DNA of 64,000 nucleotides from Lysobacter auxotrophicus (GTDB lineage: Bacteria; Pseudomonadota; Gammaproteobacteria; Xanthomonadales; Xanthomonadaceae), in NCBI RefSeq assembly GCF_027924565.1, contig NZ_AP027041.1, positions 2,170,001-2,234,000 on the forward strand, given 5' to 3'. Positions 11,111 through 53,343 of this stretch are shown here, one piece after another. The translations under genes were made by a program, and so were the position numbers. Positions within the stretch are counted from its first letter, which is position 1; the number at the start of each line of letters is the position of its first letter. Below the pieces are notes generated by a model. It was not told the origin of the DNA, ran no database searches, and worked only from the letters and a program-made list of their open reading frames with translations.

Positions 11111-11186
11111 TTGTAGCCCGGGTAAGCGCACGCGCATCCAGGGACTTGCCGCGCCCCCGGGTGCGCTGCGCTTACCCGGGCTACAA
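11111..11186. repeat. REP-like inverted repeat, copy 1
   Basis: A perfect 20-base inverted repeat. The left arm TTGTAGCCCGGGTAAGCGCA (11111-11130) pairs with the right arm at 11167-11186, with a 36-base spacer that contains a further CCCGGGTGCGC unit. The core GTAGCCCGGGT also occurs near 43192 and 62329, always between genes. This is the form of a repetitive extragenic palindrome. It follows the dgoK stop and may also help end that transcript. Confidence 0.7.
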
Positions 11187-43149: not shown

Positions 43150-43173
43150 TCGCGGTTGATGTGGGCGGATGGG

Positions 43174-43207
43174 AAAGCCCCGGGGGCGCTTCGCTTACCC
43201 GGGCTAC
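43174..43207. repeat. REP-like inverted repeat, copy 2 (partly decayed)
   Basis: CGCTTACCCGGGCTAC at 43192-43207 is identical to the right arm of copies 1 and 3. The left arm is reduced to AAGCCCCGGG (43174-43183). It sits between the convergent oxidoreductase and OmpA-like genes, whose stops are about 140 bases apart. Confidence 0.55.
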
Positions 43208-43286
43208 GAACGCCCGCGCTTCAATGCCCCGGCAAGGCGGAACGCCGCACCCAGGACGGTGCGGCATTTGCCACGTGGCGCGTGTC

Positions 43287-45746
43287 CTATTTGCGATACA
43301 GGTAGATCTCCACGCGCCGGTTACGCGCCCGCCCGTCCGGGTTGTCGGAGCCGTCCGGCTTGCGGTTCGGCTCGACCGGCTTGGTCGCGCCGAACCCGCG
43401 CGCCGCGTCGAAGGCGTAGTCGCGGTTGAACGCCCACTTGTTGCGCGTGAAGTAGTTCAGCACGCTCTGCGCGCGCCGCTTCGACAACGCGAGGTTGTAG
43501 CCGGGTTTCTTCTCCACGCTGTCGGTGTGGCCTTCCACGCCGATGCGCACATAGCCCGGCGGCAGCGTGTTGATGTAGCGGATGATGTCGCTCAGCGTCT
43601 GGTCGGCCTGGTAATGCAGCCAGTCGGTGTCGAAATCGAACAGCACGTCGCCCGGCGCGCGGATGACGAGGCCGAAATCGAAGGTCGCCACCTTGAAACC
43701 GACCGGGACGTCCTCCTTCGCCGGCAGGTTGAGCTTGAGGTCGTAGTCGGGATTGCCGGTCGGCCTGCCGTTGCCGTAATGGATCGACGTGCGTCCTAAG
43801 CCGTTGAAGCCGTGCCAGCCGGTCAGGTTCCAGTTGTCGACCTCCACGCGCATCAGCTCTTTCACCTTGTCGACGTCGTACACGGTGACCGAGCGCCACG
43901 ACTTCCCGATGCGATCCTTCAACGTCAGGCGTGCGAGCCGGTCGTGGAAATCGGCGAAGCTCATCGGCACGCGCGTCTTGAACTTCACGTAGCCCGAGTC
44001 GCGGAACGACACGCCCACCGGCAGGCCCGACGTCTTGCCGAGCGCGCTGATCGACATGCGGTGCGCGCGGTTGGTCTCGCGGTTCATCAGGTCGAACAGG
44101 CCGATCGCGCCGCCGACCTTCTTCGCGCCGCCGCCGACGGACGACAGGAACGCGATCGACCAGCGGTCGGTCTTCACGGCGTCCTGCGGATGGCGGCGCC
44201 GTGCTTCGTCTTCGTATTCGCTTTCGGCGCCTGCGTGTTGCCATGACATCGATTCGAGCGCCTGCGCGACCGTGCTTTCATCGAAACGTCCTTCATCGAG
44301 CCGGCTTTCATCGAGCTGACTTTGGTCGACCTGGTACTCGCTCGAAGGCGTTGCATCGAAGTACTCGTCGAAGCCGCGCTCGTCCAGCGACTCGGGTTGC
44401 TCCGCTTCCTGGCTCGGTGCCGGCGTGCCGACCATGCGCATGTAGCCGTGCGTCGCGTGGCCGAACGAAATGCCCGGCGTTGCGATGGTTGCGTTGTTGC
44501 CGCCCGGGATCGGGATCACAGACGGCTGCGTGTTCGCGCCGTTGGCCTCCAGTGCGTCGAAGGAGATCGAGAGCGACGCGCCGGCGGTCTTCGGACCTGC
44601 GCCGCCGCCCGGATCGACGAACACCGTGACCTTGCCGTCGAAGCTGCCCAGCCCGATGTTCGGCGCGCCGCGTCCGAGCAGGCGGAACGTGCGGAACTTC
44701 CGCGGCGGCCCCTCTTTGTAGTTGAACGAGCCGCCGAGCTTCGTCGGCCCGATGCCGAATCCCCCGCCCATCGTCTCGACCTTGAACACCGCGCGCTTGT
44801 TCTCCATGTGGTCGACGATCTGCAGGTCGGCCGCGACGGTGAGCACCTCGACGCCCGTCGCCACGCTCACTCCGATCGTGGCCGCACGCAGCAGCTGCAC
44901 GGAGAAGCGGTCTTCGATGACCGACGACGGCCGCTCCGGCGGCTTCGGCGGCGGCGGGATGAAGGTCACCTGGCGCACGATGAACACGACGCGCCGGTTC
45001 CGGCGGAACTCCGCTTCGTTCTTCGCGTTGGGCACTTTCAGCCGCTGCGAACCGAGGCCGAACTTCGTCGAGCGCCGCGCGATGCGGTCGGCGATGGCGT
45101 TGCCGCCCTTGCGCCGCAGCGCATCGACCAGCAGCGTGAAGCCGTTCTCGGCGCGCTCCTTGCTGATGCCATCCTCGAACCACTTGCGCTCCTTCGGGTC
45201 GGGAATCCGCCGCGCGATGTCGGCGAATCCTTCCACGCGAAAGGCGTAGATCGGCTGGCTGGTCTCGTTGCTGCGGATGATCTGGATCGCGAGGTCCTCG
45301 ATGGCCTTGCGCTGCGCCGGCGTGATGTCGGTGATGTATTCGGGGAAGCCGTCGAGCTCCAGCGCGGCACGCTCGCGGAAGTCCACCGGCGTGGGCAGGC
45401 GCTGCCGGTCTTCGTGCTCCTGCGCCGGCGTGGCTTCGTCCTCCGACCAGCCGACCTGCACGTCGGCCTCGGACTCCGATTCGCCCGGCGACCATTCGCC
45501 TTCCAGCGTTTCGTTCGTCGTAACGTCCGATTCGGCTTCCACGTCGAGCCAGGCGAGCCCTTCGTCCTCGTATTCGCCATGGCGCGTATCGGACGCTTCC
45601 TCCTCGCCGGCGATCGTCCCGCTGTAGGGCGTTTCCAGTTCGCTCCACGTCGGCGTGGTTTCGAAGCGGCTTGAGGTCGTGTCGGATTCGGCGAACGGCG
45701 CATCCAGTCCCAGTTCGTCGTACGGGGTGATCGGTGGCGCGGCCAT
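43287..45746 (-). CDS. Large protein with two OmpA-like domains and no signal peptide
   Basis: 819 residues. The first 110 are acidic and low-complexity with no export signal. An OmpA/MotB-like domain is visible at about 120-262 (YAFRVEGFADIARRIPD...FRRNRRVVFIVRQ) and a canonical one at the C-terminus (VLFDFDTDWLHYQ...IGVEGHTDSVEKKPGYNLALSKRRAQSV...GRARNRRVEIYL). Between them are two beta-rich segments of unknown type, separated by a short tandem repeat (SQLDESRLDEGRFDEST, about 485-505). OmpA-like domains bind peptidoglycan, yet no Sec or Tat signal is present. GGAGA precedes ATG 45746. Last gene of a five-gene operon, 22 bases after the previous stop. Confidence 0.82.
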   Translation of the reverse strand: MAAPPITPYDELGLDAPFAESDTTSSRFETTPTWSELETPYSGTIAGEEEASDTRHGEYEDEGLAWLDVEAESDVTTNETLEGEWSPGESESEADVQVGWSEDEATPAQEHEDRQRLPTPVDFRERAALELDGFPEYITDITPAQRKAIEDLAIQIIRSNETSQPIYAFRVEGFADIARRIPDPKERKWFEDGISKERAENGFTLLVDALRRKGGNAIADRIARRSTKFGLGSQRLKVPNAKNEAEFRRNRRVVFIVRQVTFIPPPPKPPERPSSVIEDRFSVQLLRAATIGVSVATGVEVLTVAADLQIVDHMENKRAVFKVETMGGGFGIGPTKLGGSFNYKEGPPRKFRTFRLLGRGAPNIGLGSFDGKVTVFVDPGGGAGPKTAGASLSISFDALEANGANTQPSVIPIPGGNNATIATPGISFGHATHGYMRMVGTPAPSQEAEQPESLDERGFDEYFDATPSSEYQVDQSQLDESRLDEGRFDESTVAQALESMSWQHAGAESEYEDEARRRHPQDAVKTDRWSIAFLSSVGGGAKKVGGAIGLFDLMNRETNRAHRMSISALGKTSGLPVGVSFRDSGYVKFKTRVPMSFADFHDRLARLTLKDRIGKSWRSVTVYDVDKVKELMRVEVDNWNLTGWHGFNGLGRTSIHYGNGRPTGNPDYDLKLNLPAKEDVPVGFKVATFDFGLVIRAPGDVLFDFDTDWLHYQADQTLSDIIRYINTLPPGYVRIGVEGHTDSVEKKPGYNLALSKRRAQSVLNYFTRNKWAFNRDYAFDAARGFGATKPVEPNRKPDGSDNPDGRARNRRVEIYLYRK

Positions 45747-45768
45747 GGCGGTTCTCCGTTCGAAGGGT

Positions 45769-46902
45769 TCAGCGCACGGCGGCCAGGCGCGGGCGCCCGA
45801 CCTCCACCGGCTTGGCGCGTGTCTTGAGGTCCTTGCCGGTGGCGGCGGCCCACTCGGTGATCACGCGGCGCGTCGCGTTGCCCAGCTCCGTGCCTTCGGC
45901 GATGAGCACCTGCACCGACGAGGTGTTCGCGATCAGCGGCGATTCGAGCGTGCGCAGGAACAGCGACAGCTCCGAGGCCATCGAGAAGAACTCCGCCGAC
46001 TTGCTGTGCGACGGCAGGCCCACGCGCTCGCCGATCAGCTTCAACCGGTTCGCCGACGAGGTCGCGTTCGCCTTGAGGTCCTGCACGACGGGCGTGTTGG
46101 TGGCCAGCGTCGCGTCAATCCAGCCCAGCACCAGCGAGGAGGCGAGTTCCTCGCGCGCCAGCATCTGGTTCTGCCGCCGCGAACGCAGCACGAACTGCAA
46201 TTCTTCGGCGATGCGGTAGATGCGGTCGCTGTCGGCGTTGTTGGCGCCTGCGAAGTTCTTGCGGTTGGCGATCGCCTGCCACAGCTCGAACAGCAGTTCC
46301 TCGAACAGGCGCACGAAGCTGGCGTTGGACGCGGCCGCCTTGATGTACGTCGACGGCCGGTTGTCCTCGGCGCCGAACGCCAGGTCCAGGCCCAGCAGGC
46401 GGTGGTAGGCCGCGCGGCGTGCGGCTTCGGGATCGACCACCGGCGCGCCCGCCGGCAGCCACGAGGTCATCGGGTTGATCGCGCCGAACAGCAGCGCTTC
46501 GGACACGTTGAGCCAGCGCTGCGTCGCCACGGACGGAATGCCCAGCGATTCGCCGGCGCGGTATTCGCGCACCACGCGGCGCAGGATCTGCACGGCGCGC
46601 GTGTTCTCCAGCACGTAGCTGTAGCCCAGGTGGTCCCACGCGGGATTGGCGTTGGTGCCGAGCGAACTGAAGCGCCCCAGCACCCACAGCTGGCGCCGCG
46701 CGGGACCGGCCGGCGCGGGATTGGGCGACCACGGACCGAAGGCGTCCCACACCTGCTCCATGTAGAGCGTCAGGTCCAGCGGATCGGCCGAGAGCACGGC
46801 GGTGGCAGCCGCCTCCAGGTTGCCGGGCGGCACCGCCGGATAATCCGGGCCCGCCGAAAGCAGGCCGATGTCGTGGATGCGCCGGATGAGTTGCTGGATC
46901 AT
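45769..46902 (-). CDS. Hypothetical protein of the BTAD/OmpA cassette
   Basis: 377 residues, soluble and mostly helical; begins MIQQLIRRIHDIGLLSAGPD. No signal peptide, no membrane helix and no catalytic motif that I recognise. Conserved-looking blocks include LDLTLYMEQVWDAFGPWSP, WDHLGYSYVLENTRAVQILRRVVREY and FVRLFEELLFELWQAI. ATG 46902 overlaps the stop of the upstream 134-residue gene (ATGA), so translation is coupled. Its constant partnership with that protein may mean they form a complex (inference). Function unknown. Confidence 0.75.
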   Translation of the reverse strand: MIQQLIRRIHDIGLLSAGPDYPAVPPGNLEAAATAVLSADPLDLTLYMEQVWDAFGPWSPNPAPAGPARRQLWVLGRFSSLGTNANPAWDHLGYSYVLENTRAVQILRRVVREYRAGESLGIPSVATQRWLNVSEALLFGAINPMTSWLPAGAPVVDPEAARRAAYHRLLGLDLAFGAEDNRPSTYIKAAASNASFVRLFEELLFELWQAIANRKNFAGANNADSDRIYRIAEELQFVLRSRRQNQMLAREELASSLVLGWIDATLATNTPVVQDLKANATSSANRLKLIGERVGLPSHSKSAEFFSMASELSLFLRTLESPLIANTSSVQVLIAEGTELGNATRRVITEWAAATGKDLKTRAKPVEVGRPRLAAVR

Positions 46903-47303
46903 GACGCGGTCCTCCCGTAGGGCGTGCTGCCCGGTTCGTGGTCGCAGCGGCCCGGCACGTCGTCGCCGATGTATTTCACCGGCGCGGTGTCGAACGACAG
47001 CGAGGTGAGGCTCCTCCAGTCCGGCGCGCGCCAGCCGGCGATCAGGTATTCGAGCAGTTGCTCCTGCTCGCGGCTGAGCGGCGGGGTTTTCGTGAGCGCC
47101 ACCAGCGGCGCCATCTGCGCGCTGATGTTCTCCAGATGGCGGGACACCGTTTCCAGCCATTCCGACGTGGAACCGAAGCCGACCCCGATGACGTTCTCGG
47201 TCGAGCTGGTCGCGGCGAACTGCAGGAACGCACTTTCGAGCATGCGGAGCCGGTGGTCGTACATCGGGTCTTCCGGCGGCGCGATGGGGGTGTCTTTGGG
47301 CAT
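46899..47303 (-). CDS. Small hypothetical protein of the BTAD/OmpA cassette
   Basis: 134 residues, soluble; begins MPKDTPIAPPEDPMYDHRLRML. A helical middle (LETVSRHLENISAQMAPLVALTKTPPLSREQEQLLEYLIAGW) looks suited to oligomerisation or protein binding. No family recognised, no export signal. GGAAG lies six bases before ATG 47303. It is 16 bases after the metalloprotease-like gene and its stop overlaps the next start (ATGA), so it is part of the same transcript. Confidence 0.72.
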   Translation of the reverse strand: MPKDTPIAPPEDPMYDHRLRMLESAFLQFAATSSTENVIGVGFGSTSEWLETVSRHLENISAQMAPLVALTKTPPLSREQEQLLEYLIAGWRAPDWRSLTSLSFDTAPVKYIGDDVPGRCDHEPGSTPYGRTAS

Positions 47304-47319
47304 GGTCTTCCTTCCTTCG

Positions 47320-48585
47320 TCAGGCGACGCGGACTTCGTGGGTCAGCCAGGCGCGCGCGCGGTCGATCCACGCAGGCGCGGTTTCGGGGTGTTCGGCTTC
47401 GCGCAGGCCGGCCAGCGCGACGATGCGGATGCCGTCGGTATTGCGCCAATGCGCGCTCGTCCACAGCGCGGGGCCCGCGCTGCGCTCCAGTTGCGCGAGC
47501 GCTTCGGGCGAGACGCGCCGCGGATCGAGCACGTCGGTCATCGGCCGGCCCTTCAGCGCCGGCACGGGCGCGGACAGGCACGCCGCGGCGATGCGCGGCA
47601 TCGCGGCCATCGAGCGCGCGAGCAGGGGCTGCACGCTGGCCTCGGCGTTGGAGACCGGGTGATGCGCCTGCATTGCGCGCTGCAGGTGCACCCACGGGCC
47701 GTTCGCGCCGAAGCACAGGCGCGAGAACGCGCAGCCCAGCGCGGTGCGCAGCCAGCCGATGGGATGCGGATCGCCGATCGGCCATTGCAGGATCGTGCGC
47801 GAATCGCCGACGACGTCGTAAAGCGCCGCCACCGACGCGTAACCGGTCAACAGGAACGCGTGCACGTCGGCGGCGATCTCCGACGCCCACGGCGTCCACA
47901 TCGCCTGCAGCTGCGCGTCGTCGGCGAGCGCGCGTGCGAGGGCGTCGCGCATCGCCGGCACCCAGCCGGTGAGGTGCGCCACCTGGTGGCCGGTTTCGTG
48001 GAACAGCGAGGTCGGGCGGTACAGGTTGTGGCGCACGATCTTGATCGCCGCCACCGGCATGATCGCGCCCGGCACCCACAGGCGGATGCCCGCGCGCAGG
48101 ATCGACGCACCCGTGCCCTTGTCCTGGTAGACGAGCGCGCGCGGCACGGGCTTGCCGGCGCGTTGCAGCACCGGCGCCATGCTCGCCACGGCGAGGCGGT
48201 CCAGCGTGGACAACGCGGCGCACAGCGTCGGGTTCGTGCGCGAGTTCACCGCGTCGCCGAGGAAATCCAGCGTGGTGTCGACCTGCACATAGCGCCGGCG
48301 GAACCGCTGCACCGACGATGCCGCCTGCGACAGCAGCGACGGGTCGCGTCGTGCCTTGGCGATCAGCGCGTTGCTCGCCTCGCCCAGCGCGATCAGCTCC
48401 TCGACGATCGCGTGCAACTGCTGGCGCAGCGGCGCGCCGATGTCGCGTTCGACCGACTTCCATGCTGCCAGCGACGCGAACTCCTCCGCATCGCGGAACG
48501 TGCGCGCGGCCGCCAGCCAGTGCGCCACCTGGCGTTGCAGGTCGGCGACGACCAGCGCGTGGTCCAGGGACTGCACGGCGCTCAT
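47320..48585 (-). CDS. HExxH zinc-metalloprotease-like protein of the BTAD/OmpA cassette
   Basis: 421 residues. The motif HETGHQVAHLTGW at 196-208 is a zinc-binding HExxH, and about 36 residues later ASEIAADVHAF supplies a glutamate (Glu236) and an aspartate in the spacing of a gluzincin-type third ligand. The first 150 residues are helical (coiled-coil-like), with no signal peptide. It follows the 802-residue gene with an ATGA overlap (48582-48585) and shares its transcript. A role in processing one of the cassette proteins, or in cell-wall/host protein cleavage, is speculation. It does not match any peptidase family I can name with confidence. Confidence 0.75.
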   Translation of the reverse strand: MSAVQSLDHALVVADLQRQVAHWLAAARTFRDAEEFASLAAWKSVERDIGAPLRQQLHAIVEELIALGEASNALIAKARRDPSLLSQAASSVQRFRRRYVQVDTTLDFLGDAVNSRTNPTLCAALSTLDRLAVASMAPVLQRAGKPVPRALVYQDKGTGASILRAGIRLWVPGAIMPVAAIKIVRHNLYRPTSLFHETGHQVAHLTGWVPAMRDALARALADDAQLQAMWTPWASEIAADVHAFLLTGYASVAALYDVVGDSRTILQWPIGDPHPIGWLRTALGCAFSRLCFGANGPWVHLQRAMQAHHPVSNAEASVQPLLARSMAAMPRIAAACLSAPVPALKGRPMTDVLDPRRVSPEALAQLERSAGPALWTSAHWRNTDGIRIVALAGLREAEHPETAPAWIDRARAWLTHEVRVA

Positions 48586-50990
48586 TTGCGGCCACGCCCC
48601 GGGGTAACGGTGATCGCGACGGTCGGCGTGCCGCGCAGCGCGTTCTCGATGGCCGCCGGCGTCGCCCTCGCCGCGCCCTGCCCGGCCTGTGCGAGCAGGT
48701 CCATGCCCGGCACTGCGCCCAGCCTCACGCGTACCGTGACGCCCGCATCGGGATGCCCCGCGGCGCGCGCGAACGCCTCGCCGTTGGCGCGTGCCCACGT
48801 CGCCAGCGCCGGCAGCACCCACGCATCGATCCGGCGCCGCAGCACCGCGGCGACGGCCGGGGGCATCGACACGCGCGCCTTCGCCGCTTCGTCCTCATGA
48901 TCCTCGCTGTCTTCCTGCACGATGCGCACGTGCCCGGCCGGCGCGCTCGCGGTTCGCTGCTGCATCGCCCGATACGCACGCGTGAGCGCCTGCAGCAGCA
49001 CCGGCCCGCGTCCCTGGCGAATGCCGTCGGCGACGGTCTGCGTGTCCGCTTCGGACAGATAGAAACCTACGGTGATGCGCGCGCGACGCAGGTTCACGAC
49101 GATCCACGCGCGGCTGGGCGCGAGTCGCGACGCCGCGGCGCGCGTGGCTGCGGGCGGCATCGCCAGCGCGCCCGCGGCGTTGACCGGTTCGAGCAGGTAG
49201 AAGCGCTGTCCCACGGCGATGCGATGACGTGAACGCAGGAACGCCGGCGCGGTGGCGACGCCCAGCTTCGGCTCGCGCAGCAGCAGGCCGGCCGCTTCCG
49301 GCGTGAGCGGATGCACGCGCCAGGAAGCCGCTGCGCCGCGCGCGCCGTTGCCGCGATCGGTGCGGATCATGCGCGGGAAGGTCGTGCCGGCCGCCGACTG
49401 GTAGATGTGCATGCGCGCGCGGAACGGGAACGTCGCGCCCGCCGCACGCAGCACGGCGCCGACCGTCGAGCCGCCGAAGGTCGGCAGCGCGTCGGCGATC
49501 TGCGCGGTGATTTCAACCTCCGGCGTGCGGTTGTACTTGCGGTACGTGCGCACGCTGCGCGGCCGCCGCGCGACGAACGTGCCGCCGACCGAAGGCGCCT
49601 GCCGCAACGGCGGGCGCACGAGGTTCTGCGGGAAGTGCGTCGCCACCGCCTCGCCGAACGCATCCGATGCAGCGAGCTGCAGCAGGTCCTCGTTCTCGAA
49701 CACGTAGTCCTCCTGCTCGGCGAGGCGCCGCACCGTGTCCTCGACGACGCTCGCGAGCGCGACCGGCGCGGCCTCGTCCGCGCGCGATTCGCGCGTGCCG
49801 TCCTCGGCTTCCAGCGCGACCAGGCGCATGCCGGTGTCGACGATCGCGTTCGACAGCGGACCCGACAGTTGCGGGCCGACCCAGCGCGAGATGAGCTTGC
49901 CGAGGTAGCCGGCCAGGAAGCGCACCACTTTCGAGCGCCCCACCAGGTTGATGCCCACGCGCAATGCGCCCAGCAGCACGGGCGCGAACTGTTCGACGGC
50001 GGGTGCGAGGTCTTCGTTGTCGTCGGCCGAGCGGATGCGGTCGATCAGCACCCCGCGCGCCTGCGCGAGGTGTTCGAGCGCGCGGCCGTCCTCGCCGGAC
50101 TCGGACTCGTACTCCGGCTCCTCGTACTCGCCGCTGTAACCGCCGGTCGCCTCGCCCGTGATCGCTTCGGCGAGTGCGGCGTCGAAGGATTCGGCCAGCG
50201 ATTCGACGTCGACGAGATTCGTCGGCGAGGACGCTTCGTACGTGCCTTCCGAATCGAACGCTTCGGAAGTGATCTTCGCCGCCAGCGTGCGCGCGGCCGG
50301 TTGCAGCGCGGCGGGAAGCCGGCCGATCGCCATCGACAGCACGCGCTTGAGCAGCGGGTTGATGAGCGCCTTCAGGCGCTGCAGCACGGGGCCCAGCAAC
50401 GTGCCCGCCACCTTGCCCACCGTCTTGGCGGTGTTGGCGACGAACTTCACCACCTTCTTCGCCTTGCGCACGATGGCGCTGACGAACTCCTCGCCGGCCG
50501 GCGTCATTTCCCCGGTCTGCGGGTCCAGGCGATCGAGCGCTTCGGACAATTGCTCCTCACCCATCGATTCGAGGTCCTGCCCCGCGAGCGCCTGCTCCAG
50601 CGACTCCAGGTACTGCCCGGCTTCGAAGCGCACCGGCGAGAGCTGCGCGTCGGCGTAGCGTTCGCGCTCGGCGGCGGACGACGGCGACTCGTCGGTGAAG
50701 CGGTCGGCGACGGTCTGTTCGGTTTCCTCGGTCAGGAACGCGACGGCCTCATCGAACGCCTCGTCGCGCAGTTCGGCGAAGGCCTGCGCGAGCAGGCGAT
50801 CGGATTCGGATTGCGGCATCGCCTCGCCGATGGCTTCGGCGAACGGCGAGGCGCTCTCGTCGCCGGGCGCCATGCGCTCGGCGGGCGGCGATTCCGCTTC
50901 GGGCATCGCCTCGGCCATCGCCTCGGCGAAGGGATTCTGCTCGGACTGCGCGTTCCATTCCCGGTCGAGCGCTTCCTGGATCATCGTCAT
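48582..50990 (-). CDS. Large acidic/cationic hypothetical protein, lead gene of the BTAD/OmpA cassette
   Basis: 802 residues, no signal peptide. The first 165 residues are acidic, with a repeat (NPFAEAMAEAMPEAES and SPFAEAIGEAMPQSES). Residues 168-240 switch to a strongly basic amphipathic helical run (RKAKKVVKFVANTAKTVGKV, LQRLKALINPLLKRVL). Another acidic block (about 243-330) precedes a second basic hydrophobic run at 332-392 (GINLVGRSKVVRFLAGYLGK). The last 340 residues form an unrecognised domain. ATG 50990 has GGAG at a proper distance. The frame continues upstream without a credible start. The helices look membrane-active, but no known toxin family is evident. Confidence 0.78.
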   Translation of the reverse strand: MTMIQEALDREWNAQSEQNPFAEAMAEAMPEAESPPAERMAPGDESASPFAEAIGEAMPQSESDRLLAQAFAELRDEAFDEAVAFLTEETEQTVADRFTDESPSSAAERERYADAQLSPVRFEAGQYLESLEQALAGQDLESMGEEQLSEALDRLDPQTGEMTPAGEEFVSAIVRKAKKVVKFVANTAKTVGKVAGTLLGPVLQRLKALINPLLKRVLSMAIGRLPAALQPAARTLAAKITSEAFDSEGTYEASSPTNLVDVESLAESFDAALAEAITGEATGGYSGEYEEPEYESESGEDGRALEHLAQARGVLIDRIRSADDNEDLAPAVEQFAPVLLGALRVGINLVGRSKVVRFLAGYLGKLISRWVGPQLSGPLSNAIVDTGMRLVALEAEDGTRESRADEAAPVALASVVEDTVRRLAEQEDYVFENEDLLQLAASDAFGEAVATHFPQNLVRPPLRQAPSVGGTFVARRPRSVRTYRKYNRTPEVEITAQIADALPTFGGSTVGAVLRAAGATFPFRARMHIYQSAAGTTFPRMIRTDRGNGARGAAASWRVHPLTPEAAGLLLREPKLGVATAPAFLRSRHRIAVGQRFYLLEPVNAAGALAMPPAATRAAASRLAPSRAWIVVNLRRARITVGFYLSEADTQTVADGIRQGRGPVLLQALTRAYRAMQQRTASAPAGHVRIVQEDSEDHEDEAAKARVSMPPAVAAVLRRRIDAWVLPALATWARANGEAFARAAGHPDAGVTVRVRLGAVPGMDLLAQAGQGAARATPAAIENALRGTPTVAITVTPGRGRK

Positions 50991-51186
50991 GACACGGCTC
51001 CGCGGCGGTGGCTTGCACGCGGGCAGTCCACCACGGCGCCCGTCCAGCGACGTACCTGTGTGCGTTGCTAGGCCGTGCGCGCTGCGTCGTACGCGCATCA
51101 ACGCGGCGTCGGCGTATCGGTCGCGCTGCGTCGCCGTTGCGTCCGCAACGCGTCCACGCGCGAGCTGGGCACTGCGATTGCCGGAT

Positions 51187-51891
51187 TCAGTGAGCGTGCG
51201 TGCGGGCGTGCGCGAGCTCGCCGACGCGCCGCGCGAGCGCGGGATCGGGTTCGACGCCCAGTTCATCGTCCAGCCGCTGCGCGAGCAGCCGGAAACACTG
51301 CACGGCCTGGTAGCGGTTTCGCTGCGCGAGGTGCGCGTCGATCAGCGCTTCGGCGGCCGATTCGCGCAGCGGTTCGGCAGCGAGCGCCGCGGCGCCGGCC
51401 TGCGTCGCCAGATCGTGCTGGCCCAGCGCGGTCAGCGTGCGGCACGCCGCCTCCAGCGCCTGCACGCGCAGGATGCGGAACGCGTCGTAATGCGCGAGCA
51501 CCCATTCCTCGTGCCAGCCGGGCAGCAGGTCGCCCGAGAGCAGCGCGATGTCGTCCAGCGTGAGCGCCTCGCCTGCCAGCGCCTGTGCGGCGACGCGATG
51601 GGCATGTTCCAGATCGCATTGCGCGTCCAGGGCGAGCTCATCGCCGAGTGCACGGATCCAGCCACGCGGCACGTGCCAGAGCGCGCGGCGCAGGTTGGCG
51701 CGACCGGCCTCCTCGCCCGCATTCGGCCACAGGTGCGCCGACGCCAGCGCACGCGCGACGGGCTGCCGCTGCAATGCCAGGTACGCGAGCAGTCGCCGGC
51801 CGGGCAGCGACAATCGCATCATCGGATACACGCCGAGGCGTCCGACGATGGCAATTTTGCGTGTCACGTTGTCGTGGGGGAGATCCGTCAC
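51187..51891 (-). CDS. BTAD-domain (SARP-like) transcriptional regulator
   Basis: 234 residues. The N-terminal third (KIAIVGRLGVYPMMRLSLPGRRLLAYLAL... LWPNAGEEAGRANLRRALWHV) is the OmpR-like winged-helix half of SARP regulators. It is followed by a bacterial transcriptional activation domain of TPR-like helices (LLSGDLLPGWHEEWVLAHYDAFRILRVQALEAAC ... LDDELGVEPDPAL). There is no receiver or ATPase domain. The start is GTG 51891 with GAGGCAGAGG upstream. The gene is on the same strand as the five-gene cassette and ends 197 bases before it, so it is the probable activator. Confidence 0.88.
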   Translation of the reverse strand: MTDLPHDNVTRKIAIVGRLGVYPMMRLSLPGRRLLAYLALQRQPVARALASAHLWPNAGEEAGRANLRRALWHVPRGWIRALGDELALDAQCDLEHAHRVAAQALAGEALTLDDIALLSGDLLPGWHEEWVLAHYDAFRILRVQALEAACRTLTALGQHDLATQAGAAALAAEPLRESAAEALIDAHLAQRNRYQAVQCFRLLAQRLDDELGVEPDPALARRVGELAHARTHAH

Positions 51892-52059
51892 CCTCTGCCT
51901 CGACGGCGCGGCGGAACGGGGCCGCGTGACGCGGACTTTCAGTCCACTTCGATAGGACGCATTCCGTGCGCGCTTTCGGTCAACGACAAGCGTGAATGGC
52001 GAAACGGATGCGCCGCCGCGCGCAGCCGGCGATGCATCCGTCGCGCGGGGTGCGTTCGA

Positions 52060-53343
52060 CTACTTGTCCTTCGACGATGTCGTTGCAGCGTCCGCATCGT
52101 GAATGACGCGCCCGTCGCGCACGGTCATGCGAACGTCGGCGAAGGCTTCGTTGCTCTTGCGCGGATCGCCGCGCAGCAGCACGAGGTCGCCCGCGTAGCC
52201 TTGCGCGATGCGCCCGCGCTGCGCGCCCTGCCCGAAACGCTGCGCCGGCGCCGTGGTCAGGCTCGTCAGGATCTGGCGCCAGTCCATCCCGGCCGCACTC
52301 ATCAACCTGTATTCGAGGTGCGTGTCGTAGACCTCGATGTAGCCGGCGTCGGTGCCGAACAGGATCTGCCCGCCGCCCTGCGCCATCGCCCGCACCTGCT
52401 GCGTCGCGGCGCCAACGAAGCGCTGCAGGACCTCCTCCGGCACGTTCTCGCGGCGCAGTTCGGAATCGAACAGCGTCAGCGTGGGCACCAGCGCCATGTC
52501 GTCGGCCTTCAGCCGCGCGACGAACGCCGGCGACCACTCGCCCGCGTCCGGCGCGGTGTGCGCGAGCACGTCCACGCCGCTGTCGATGGCGACGTCCAGG
52601 CCGGCCTGGTCCGTCGGATGGGCGAAGGCGGGCTTTCCGTGCGCGTGGGCTTCCTCGACGATCGCACGCGCGATGTCGGCGGACATCGGCAACACGCCGC
52701 GCGGCCCGCCGACGATGGCGCCGGTGAACAGCTTCACGCCGTCGGCGCCCGCCTGTATCTGCGACGCGGCGCGCGAACGCCCCTGCTCCGCGCTGGCGAT
52801 CTCGGCGCTGGGCGCCTTGGTCTTCTCCCACAGCTCGCGCACGTAGATCGGCGTGCCGTGTTCGGGATAGAACGGCATGTCGACGGTCAGCAACTGCGGG
52901 CCGACGACATCGCCGCGCTCGATGCGGCCGCGCAGGGCGCGCACGTCGCCGGGCAGCGAGGCGATGTCGAACAGCGTGGTGAAGCCCCACTGCGTGAAGC
53001 GCTCGCGCAGCGCATCGCTCAACACGGCCGCGGGCTGGTCGCCCGGTTGATGGAACGGCGGCGCGATCAGGTGGACGTGGCTGTTCCAGAAGCCGGCCGT
53101 CACGCTCGTTCCGCGTCCGTCGACGACCTGCGTCCCGCGCGGCACGTCGACGCGCTTGCGCGGACCGACGGCGGTGATGCGGCCGTCGCGGATCAGCACC
53201 GTCGCGTCGTCGATGGGCGCGGCGTCCGGCGCGGGAAACACGCGGGCGCCGACGATGGCGAGGTCCTGCGCCATGGCGGGCATCGCGATGGACAGCAGCA
53301 GCGCGCTGGCGACGGCGCACAGGGTTGGAACGGTCTTGCGCAT
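52060..53343 (-). CDS. Secreted amidohydrolase family protein
   Basis: 427 residues with signal peptide [25 protein letters not shown]. The amidohydrolase superfamily metal sites are visible: [10 protein letters not shown] (HxH), [12 protein letters not shown] (the carbamylated-lysine position), [20 protein letters not shown], and [11 protein letters not shown] (catalytic Asp). The imidazolonepropionase-like branch is the best fit. The periplasmic location and the neighbours do not define a substrate. ATG 53343 follows a GGGGAAA site. Divergent from the aldehyde oxidoreductase operon across a 258-base region in which I see no further feature. Confidence 0.88.

What the first reader, a model, noticed from the sequence alone, without database searches (positions are those of the whole stretch)
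43287..51891. Unnamed five-gene cassette with a BTAD regulator, HExxH protease and non-secreted OmpA-domain protein
Five minus-strand genes, with two ATGA overlaps and gaps of 16-22 bases, encode: an 802-residue protein with alternating acidic and cationic helical blocks, a HExxH protein, 134- and 377-residue unknowns, and an 819-residue double-OmpA protein. A SARP/BTAD regulator, a class unusual outside actinobacteria, lies 197 bases upstream on the same strand. None of the five has a visible Sec or Tat signal although two have envelope-type features. I find no tail sheath, tube, baseplate or secretion ATPase, so it is not a canonical contractile injection or secretion system. It looks like a conserved module with its own regulator, possibly an envelope-acting or toxin-like system.
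Basis: partly seen in the sequence, partly recalled or inferred. Interest (0 to 1): 0.82.

Follow-up and report, generated by a model that had tools for sequence, protein, structure and literature searches.

The report
Mobile cassette with exchangeable cell-wall cargo
A small set of bacterial genes from unknown families, found together in bacteria of several phyla and usually with its own switch gene, ends in an exchangeable protein that mostly targets the cell wall, so it may be an undescribed way for cells to make and deploy such proteins without the usual export signal.

Summary
g802, the HExxH peptidase and g377 recur in fixed order, usually with BTAD upstream, in 53 genomes of Pseudomonadota, Actinomycetota and (MAGs only) Acidobacteriota and Bacteroidota (g802 53 of 53, g377 52 of 53, BTAD within 2.5 kb upstream 46 of 53; loci were found by their HExxH). 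The fifth gene is not fixed. It is an exchangeable cargo: acidic N-terminus, no signal peptide, often a short motif, then differing domains, mostly peptidoglycan-directed (26 of 33 scanned; OmpA here). A three-heptamer, 11-bp-spaced SARP-type operator precedes g802 here and in much of the first clade, but not in most of the second. In two congeners the flanking genes abut, so the cassette is an 8.9-kb insertion. g802 and g377 match no family and no solved fold. This genome has no contractile sheath and no eCIS_core protein. Most likely it is a horizontally spread, SARP-controlled cassette that equips and deploys signal-less cell-wall-acting proteins. Delivery versus lysis versus storage is unresolved. 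Nine searches of an open-licence library listed no paper that I recognised as describing it.

The parts
51187..51891 (-). BTAD (SARP-type) transcriptional regulator, 234 aa
   Evidence: Pfam BTAD E 9.5e-14; BTAD within 2.5 kb upstream of g802 in 46 of 53 related loci
51128..51155 (-). putative SARP operator: three heptamers (GGACGCG, GGACGCA, CGACGCA; the last base of the third lies at 51127) with 4-nt spacers, 11-bp period
   Evidence: this locus p 0.05 in 60 shuffles; the only exact match in 4.16 Mb (the pattern was drawn from this site); SARP spacing as in PMC10972967 and PMC5930380 (passages)
48582..50990 (-). g802: acidic, low-confidence N-terminus with NPFAEA/SPFAEA motifs, alternating cationic helical blocks, predicted alpha/beta C-terminal region; no known family or fold
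   Evidence: residues ~166-220 align with the acidic partner protein of type B clusters
47320..48585 (-). HExxH protein, 421 aa, gluzincin-type motif; start overlaps the g802 stop (ATGA)
   Evidence: H196, E197, H200, E236, D240 and H274 identical in 34 of 34 aligned homologues
47986..48000 (-). HExxH motif (HETGH, residues 196-200)
   Evidence: sequence
46899..47303 (-). g134: small, fast-changing protein; 47 of 53 loci have a called ORF between HExxH and g377
   Evidence: sequence relation to g134 seen in 6 loci only
45769..46902 (-). g377: all-helical protein, AF2 pLDDT 86.6, pTM 0.86, no match in PDB or viral fold libraries at E <= 0.001
   Evidence: found in 52 of 53 loci
43287..45746 (-). 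cargo gene, 819 aa: acidic N-terminus then OmpA-containing body; replaced by other domains in relatives
45417..45746 (-). cargo N-terminal region (residues 1-110, acidic, with LGLDAPFAES); all or part of it is what aligns with the cargoes of L032, L033 and L034
   Evidence: no other copy in this genome at E <= 1, and none in G019
43350..43643 (-). C-terminal OmpA (peptidoglycan-binding) domain of the cargo
   Evidence: Pfam PF00691, residues 702-799
43150..52093 (.). approximate extent of the insertion relative to congeners G001 and G003
   Evidence: flanking genes abut in G001 and G003

Best explanation
SHOWN (by sequence comparison): this is a horizontally mobile cassette with a conserved core (g802, HExxH protein, g377, usually a BTAD regulator and a small gene) and an exchangeable last gene, the cargo. 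The cargo has an acidic N-terminal region, in most cases a short motif there, no hydrophobic N-terminal signal, and mostly peptidoglycan-directed domains. INFERRED: the BTAD/SARP protein binds the three-heptamer operator and switches on one transcript. g802 and the HExxH protein are made in coupled fashion and act together, the peptidase probably processing g802 and/or the cargo. g802's cationic amphipathic blocks act on the membrane, g377 is an adaptor or scaffold, and the cargo thereby reaches the cell wall (own or neighbour's) without Sec or Tat. In this genome the cargo is a double-OmpA protein that would bind peptidoglycan. The delivery step is the weakest part of the inference.
For: Co-occurrence and order: g802 53 of 53, g377 52 of 53, BTAD within 2.5 kb upstream 46 of 53 loci chosen by HExxH alone; in two of the six loci without BTAD the contig ends at g802. 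Congruent divergence: Mantel r 0.89 (BTAD), 0.92 (g377), 0.93 (g802) against HExxH, 0 of 999 permutations as high. Cargo exchange: window vs L032 share 83% in HExxH, but only cargo residues 5-112 align. Cargo domains: 26 of 33 cargo proteins have an above-cut-off peptidoglycan-directed domain (VanY/M15, glucosaminidase, NlpC/P60, PG_binding_1, phage lysozyme); tyrosinase, PhoD and trypsin also occur. Motif: PF[AVSR] in g802 N-termini 36 of 42 (4.7 expected) and cargo 23 of 47 (5.4 expected); WPxRxDV in 15 of 47 cargoes, all actinobacterial (0.25 expected); cargo N-termini 24% D+E; 0 of 47 hydrophobic. Operator: mean triple-repeat score at period 11 is 14.19 against 12.2 +/- 0.22 in shuffles, best of periods 8-15. 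Insertion. Coupling: g802 and HExxH genes overlap by 1-11 bases in 42 of 50 called pairs. The six loci with tyrosinase-type cargo carry a PpoB2-type gene (Pfam for tyrosinase in L046, L051, L054 and for PpoB2 in L046).
Against: No component is a recognisable translocase. g802 has no stretch above 1.34 in 19-residue hydropathy; the cargo has one of 1.64, at the conventional transmembrane line (line recalled). Delivery, processing and membrane action are untested. The motifs were defined after inspection; 11 of 47 cargoes have neither, and motifs differ between clades. The window's cargo N-terminus does not align at E 1e-3 with the cargoes of L035, L036 (G019) or L038. Many close actinobacterial pairs keep the same cargo over its whole length, so exchange is not frequent everywhere. 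The heptamer repeat is significant (p <= 0.05) in 15 of 25 loci of the first clade (window, L031-L054) but only 4 of 28 of the rest. Seven of 33 cargo proteins lack an above-cut-off peptidoglycan domain. Four loci with enough upstream sequence (L058, L063, L068, L081) have no BTAD. The congruence test does not by itself separate co-transfer from joint vertical descent.
Confidence: 0.45

Rival explanations
1. Programmed lysis or altruistic-release cassette: g802 damages the membrane (activated by the HExxH peptidase, gasdermin- or holin-like) and the cargo, often a peptidoglycan hydrolase, opens the wall, killing the producer and releasing products or stopping phage.
For: Signal-less peptidoglycan hydrolases paired with a protein of cationic amphipathic blocks; distant HExxH relatives sit beside CHAT and patatin genes in L008 and CHAT and C25-peptidase genes in L011; T10SS/holin release is a known parallel (search listing and starts of abstracts only).
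Against: The cargo here (OmpA) and some elsewhere (tyrosinase, PhoD, trypsin) is not lytic; no holin-like transmembrane segment in g802; PADLOC gives the non-OmpA core proteins nothing better than E 0.028.
Confidence: 0.25
2. Bacteriocin-like maturation: g802 is a precursor whose acidic leader is removed by the HExxH peptidase to free membrane-active cationic segments; the cargo is a co-exported partner.
For: Acidic N-terminus followed by cationic helices; gene overlap with the peptidase; in type B clusters the partner has the form acidic region + FLGxLIKKA + hydrophobic/cationic region.
Against: g802 has a predicted alpha/beta C-terminal region with conserved residues, unlike a peptide precursor; no exporter recognised in the cassette; long multidomain cargo is unexplained.
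Confidence: 0.14
3. Cytoplasmic particle or storage body: g802 and g377 form an assembly that holds tagged enzymes, as encapsulin cargo tags do (analogy recalled).
For: Short N-terminal motifs on otherwise differing cargoes; no export component recognised.
Against: Most cargo domains act on extracytoplasmic substrates; no shell-like fold found.
Confidence: 0.1
4. The cargo is loaded into an eCIS (contractile particle) encoded elsewhere.
For: BTAD and C-terminal OmpA domains are reported with eCIS/PVC loci (passages of PMC8213781 and PMC3482391); G019 has a sheath gene and two eCIS_core genes on another contig.
Against: No sheath and no eCIS_core match in the window's complete genome; 11 of 13 carrier genomes searched have no sheath (a fourteenth, L032's, is not held).
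Confidence: 0.03

Closest known systems
Polymorphic toxin/effector systems (2012 survey, PMC3482391; passages seen)
   Same: Conserved N-terminal region followed by exchangeable C-terminal domains; OmpA listed there as a putative PVC-delivered toxin domain; metallopeptidases as releasing enzymes
   Different: Pfam recognised no trafficking domain in the cargo scanned here; no recognisable immunity gene; the N-terminal region is acidic with a short motif; core partners are unknown families
eCIS/PVC cargo loci (2021 survey, PMC8213781; passages seen)
   Same: BTAD as associated regulator, an HExxH metallopeptidase, diverse cargo towards the 3' end of the operon
   Different: No sheath and no eCIS_core match in this genome; the HExxH protein has no Pfam match
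Type 10 secretion / lysis-cassette export (recalled; listing seen)
   Same: Signal-less proteins handled together with peptidoglycan endopeptidases
   Different: No holin-like transmembrane segment in g802; different core genes
SARP-controlled gene clusters of Streptomyces (PMC10972967, PMC5930380; passages)
   Same: BTAD regulator with triple heptamers at 11-bp period
   Different: Here beside a protein-cargo cassette, not an antibiotic cluster, and in a proteobacterium
Type B HExxH clusters (L084-L110; I know no name for them)
   Same: Acidic FLGxLIKKA-type protein before a ~30% identical HExxH protein
   Different: No g802, g377 or BTAD match at 1e-5 in the 27 loci held (some flanks short); instead, in L086, Amidohydro_2, a sigma-54 activator and a sub-cut-off aminotransferase match, with similar neighbours by eye elsewhere

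Membership tests
eCIS / PVC | contractile sheath protein (PF04984) | tested here: not met
   0 matches in G000; 2 of 13 carrier genomes have one
eCIS / PVC | eCIS_core / DUF4157 (PF13699) | tested here: not met
   0 matches in G000; 2 of 13 carriers; no Pfam hit to the HExxH protein
Type 10 secretion | holin-type transmembrane protein | tested here: not met
   hydropathy scan only: g802 at most 1.34, the small protein 0.85; the cargo reaches 1.64 once
Type 10 secretion | peptidoglycan endopeptidase encoded in the operon | tested here: inconclusive
   M15/VanY in many relatives' cargo, not in the window, where the cargo is OmpA
Polymorphic effector systems | conserved N-terminus with exchangeable C-terminal domains | tested here: met
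   window against L032, L033, L034; not alignable against L035, L036, L038 at E 1e-3
Polymorphic toxin systems | downstream immunity gene | tested here: inconclusive
   recurrent neighbours are NlpC/P60-like, PpoB2-like and unknowns; none is recognisable as immunity
SARP regulators | BTAD domain | tested here: met
   E 9.5e-14
SARP regulators | N-terminal winged-helix DNA-binding domain | tested here: inconclusive
   not reported by Pfam; only a weak PDB match to AfsR over residues 117-221, E 0.57
SARP regulators | heptamer direct repeats with 11-bp period at the target promoter | tested here: met
   window p 0.05; 15 of 25 first-clade loci, 4 of 28 others; binding itself not testable here
Gluzincin metallopeptidases | HExxH plus downstream Glu zinc ligand | tested here: met
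   34 of 34 keep H196, E197, H200 and E236; ligand role recalled; fold not predicted, activity not testable
Known anti-phage defence systems | match to PADLOC models | tested here: not met
   only OmpA-domain hits to ZorB and one weak hit (E 0.028)

The most novel reading that the evidence does not exclude
A previously undescribed class of protein-deployment system, working in both one-membrane and two-membrane bacteria, in which an acidic N-terminal tag directs signal-less, cell-wall-acting cargo to a device made of g802, an HExxH peptidase and the all-helical g377, under SARP control and spread by horizontal transfer across phyla.
Probability: 0.38. Interest if true: 0.88.

Novelty: categorically new. 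Interest (0 to 1): 0.73.

Why it matters
Three core proteins of a cassette found in at least two phyla of isolates (four with MAGs) have no family in the four libraries searched and, for the two modelled, no recognisable solved fold; yet the cassette carries exchangeable cell-wall enzymes without a hydrophobic N-terminal signal. If the cargo leaves the cytoplasm, this is a new export or delivery route; if it kills the cell, a new lysis module. Either way the motif, peptidase, adaptor and operator are defined well enough to test in a few experiments, and the cargo list is a source of unusual peptidoglycan hydrolases and tyrosinases.

Tried and rejected
Rejected: eCIS delivery (no sheath or eCIS_core in this genome). 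Phage origin: no HExxH relative among phage records; 75 pattern hits in viral contigs, none confirmed; no fold match in the viral library for g377. Housekeeping genes: of 119 genomes searched, own included, only own and G019 have the HExxH gene. Chance adjacency.

Led nowhere: PDB sequence searches for HExxH, g377 and g802 profiles (no useful match for HExxH (best E 0.066), none for g377, and one weak hit, E 0.005, of g802 residues ~62-157 to 3a8r, not pursued); Foldseek for g377 and g802 (nothing at E <= 0.001); HExxH vs g377 profile comparison; nine paper searches, none of which listed a paper that I recognised as describing this cassette. The library holds open-licence PubMed Central papers only, so this is not proof of absence. 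A first gene caller trained on longest ORFs picked wrong frames and was replaced.

Caveats on counts: the 53 loci were retrieved by HExxH and are the first 53 of the 80 kept from 288 confirmed relatives, so HExxH presence is by construction. The four Acidobacteriota and Bacteroidota loci (L056, L073, L058, L081) are MAG contigs. Gene starts in relatives come from my own caller. One search's crude up/down label put 42 BTAD upstream and 5 downstream; by the coordinates four of those five merely overlap the g802 reading frame and only L066 is truly downstream. In L064 another gene lies between BTAD and g802. The motif and heptamer patterns were chosen after looking; shuffles and other periods are the controls (period 12 was also raised, 13.28). 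The 33 cargo proteins scanned come from 31 of the 46 loci with a called cargo; two of them are second cargo genes (L065, L083); the window's own cargo is not in that count. Sub-cut-off hits (L054, first gene of L083) and the DUF2272-only protein were not counted. Among the 47 cargo proteins, L082's is a fragment of a locus broken by frameshifts (described only) and L052's called gene may not be a cargo. G558 and G795 HExxH loci were fetched but their neighbours were not annotated (low GC). On re-checking I changed the overlap count (41 to 42), the cargoes without motif (9 to 11) and the wording on BTAD, operator, tag and phyla; the odds did not need changing.
Full report
The observation. Pfam and NCBIfam recognise only OmpA (two Pfam stretches) and BTAD; the other four proteins have no family there and nothing better than E 0.028 in PHROGs or PADLOC. 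None has a hydrophobic N-terminus. The genome is held as one 4.16-Mb contig.

It is one module. Plasmid searches with the HExxH protein first found distant relatives in Rhizobium, Ensifer, Paraburkholderia and Bradyrhizobium, and a close one in another genome of the same family, G019 (L009, the same locus as L036). A scan of one genome for each of 84,980 species with a five-sequence HExxH alignment gave 288 confirmed relatives, of which the best 80 were kept. The first 53 (L031-L083) form type A. Profile searches of these loci find g802 in 53 of 53, g377 in 52 of 53 (the exception is cut by a contig end) and BTAD within 2.5 kb upstream of g802 in 46 of 53. L066 has its BTAD downstream. Of the six loci with none, two have no upstream sequence to test and four (L058, L063, L068, L081) do lack it. 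A called ORF lies between HExxH and g377 in 47 of 53, but only 6 of these are alike to g134 in sequence. By their record titles the hosts are Pseudomonadota (alpha, beta, gamma) and Actinomycetota, and, as MAGs only, Acidobacteriota and Bacteroidota. Pairwise divergence of BTAD, g377 and g802 is strongly congruent with that of HExxH (Mantel r 0.89-0.93, 0 of 999 permutations). Apart from the cargo and the small-protein slot, the most widespread neighbouring gene family occurs in 9 loci. The g802 and HExxH genes overlap by 1-11 bases in 42 of 50 called pairs.

It moved in. In two congeners, G001 and G003, the two genes that flank the cassette here (curcumin-reductase-type oxidoreductase and amidohydrolase) abut tail to tail, so the window carries an insertion of about 8.9 kb. 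In G003 only the 3' half of the oxidoreductase gene lies there, the rest elsewhere; three other congeners with close copies of both genes (G007-G009) have them apart. The cassette's HExxH gene was not found in any of the 11 congeners searched. HExxH is 83% identical to that of the betaproteobacterium Cupriavidus necator, as high as the flanking amidohydrolase is to a congener's (75-84%).

The fifth gene is a cargo slot. In relatives the gene after g377 encodes proteins of 286 to 2110 residues (the broken L082 apart) with different domains. Of 33 such proteins scanned (from 31 of the 46 loci with a called cargo; two are second cargo genes), 26 have an above-cut-off peptidoglycan-directed domain: VanY/M15, glucosaminidase, NlpC/P60, PG_binding_1 or phage lysozyme. 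Tyrosinase (with PG_binding_1), PhoD, M35-type peptidase and trypsin also occur. The OmpA domain of the window's cargo fits this pattern, and an actinobacterial cargo (L083) shows a sub-cut-off OmpA match. Between the window and L032, whose HExxH proteins are 83% identical, only residues 5-112 of the window's cargo align; with L033 and L034 it is residues 2-74 and 5-73, with L031 residues 2-260 at 29%, and with L035, L036 and L038 nothing at E 1e-3. Exchange is not universal: many close actinobacterial pairs keep one cargo over its full length. The N-terminal part is acidic (24% D+E over the first 120 residues of 47 cargoes, against 11% later), never hydrophobic (0 of 47), and often carries a short motif: PF[AVSR] in 23 of 47 (5.4 expected) or, in part of the actinobacteria, WPxRxDV in 15 of 47 (0.25 expected). 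L064 and L066 have both; 11 of 47 have neither. g802 carries the PF motif in its own acidic N-terminus in 36 of 42 (4.7 expected). The six loci with tyrosinase-type cargo also carry a PpoB2 (copper chaperone)-type gene (Pfam on examples), which suggests that this cargo is a working enzyme.

Control. Upstream of g802 three heptamers at 11-bp period recur; the mean score over 53 upstream regions is 14.19 against 12.2 +/- 0.22 in dinucleotide shuffles, and 11 is the best of periods 8-15. The signal sits in the first clade (window and L031-L054: 15 of 25 at p <= 0.05, 60 shuffles each) and is largely missing in the rest (4 of 28). The window copy is at 51128-51155 (p 0.05) and its exact pattern is unique in the genome, though the pattern was drawn from it. 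Published SARP operators have this form: three heptamers with four-nucleotide spacers (PMC10972967, passages; PMC5930380, passages).

The proteins. The HExxH protein keeps H196, E197, H200, E236, D240 and H274 in 34 of 34 aligned homologues, as expected of an active gluzincin (motif knowledge recalled). g377 is predicted with good confidence as all-helical (pLDDT 86.6, pTM 0.86) and matches nothing in PDB or viral libraries at E <= 0.001. g802 is modelled less well (pLDDT 72.5, with low-confidence stretches), alternates acidic and cationic stretches and has no PDB fold match at E <= 0.001. Its residues ~166-220 align by profile with the acidic protein that precedes the HExxH gene in type B clusters (hhalign probability 82%), so 'acidic FLGxLxxKA protein + HExxH protein' may be the older pair from which both cluster types derive (inference).

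What it is not. The window's genome has no contractile sheath and no eCIS_core match, and 11 of 13 carrier genomes searched have no sheath. No HExxH relative was found in phage records or confirmed in viral contigs. g802 has no holin-like segment by hydropathy. There is no PADLOC defence match beyond the OmpA domain and one weak hit.

Mechanism. I commit to a deployment cassette: the SARP regulator switches on the operon; g802 and the coupled HExxH peptidase form the active pair; g377 and the small protein serve assembly; and the cargo is brought to the cell wall without Sec or Tat. The module, its mobility, the cargo exchange and the first-clade operator are shown in silico; processing, membrane action and delivery are inferred. 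Programmed lysis is the strongest rival. Nine literature searches in an open-licence library listed no paper that I recognised as describing this cassette; four papers were seen in passages only.

Noticed in passing
L084-L110, L004-L006, L018-L020, L027: Type B clusters: one or two acidic 'MHDIDR...FLGxLIKKA' proteins, a ~30% identical HExxH protein, often a ~500-750-aa unknown, a PLP-enzyme-like protein, an amidohydrolase and a sigma-54-type activator (Pfam on L086 only; the rest by eye); several neighbours also carry N-terminal PF motifs.
   Followed up: partly
L008 19491-20912; L011 19743-21131: Distant HExxH relatives on Bradyrhizobium and Sinorhizobium plasmids sit beside CHAT genes with patatin and phospholipase D (L008) or C25 peptidase and ATP-binding protein genes (L011), a neighbourhood that looks like conflict or defence.
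   Followed up: no
window 43177-43210 and 11152-11184: A ~32-bp intergenic repeat, also present in congeners L114 and L115, lies at the 3' edge of the cassette.
   Followed up: no
G019 contig 8, about 374-382 kb: The related genome G019 carries a contractile sheath gene and two eCIS_core genes, separate from its cassette.
   Followed up: no
L065 4710-6428 and 8 similar loci: A 452-593-aa gene with no Pfam family (tested for L065) lies upstream of the cassette in 9 actinobacterial loci; 7 of the 9 have a second BTAD gene.
   Followed up: partly
L031 18439-19350 and L032, L033, L035: An NlpC/P60-like gene (Pfam on L031; relatives by BLAST) follows the cargo in four proteobacterial cassettes.
   Followed up: partly
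window 43287-45746 (OmpA domain): The best PDB sequence match of the cargo's OmpA domain is a photosystem I PsaB chain (7f4v), matched at its C-terminal end.
   Followed up: no
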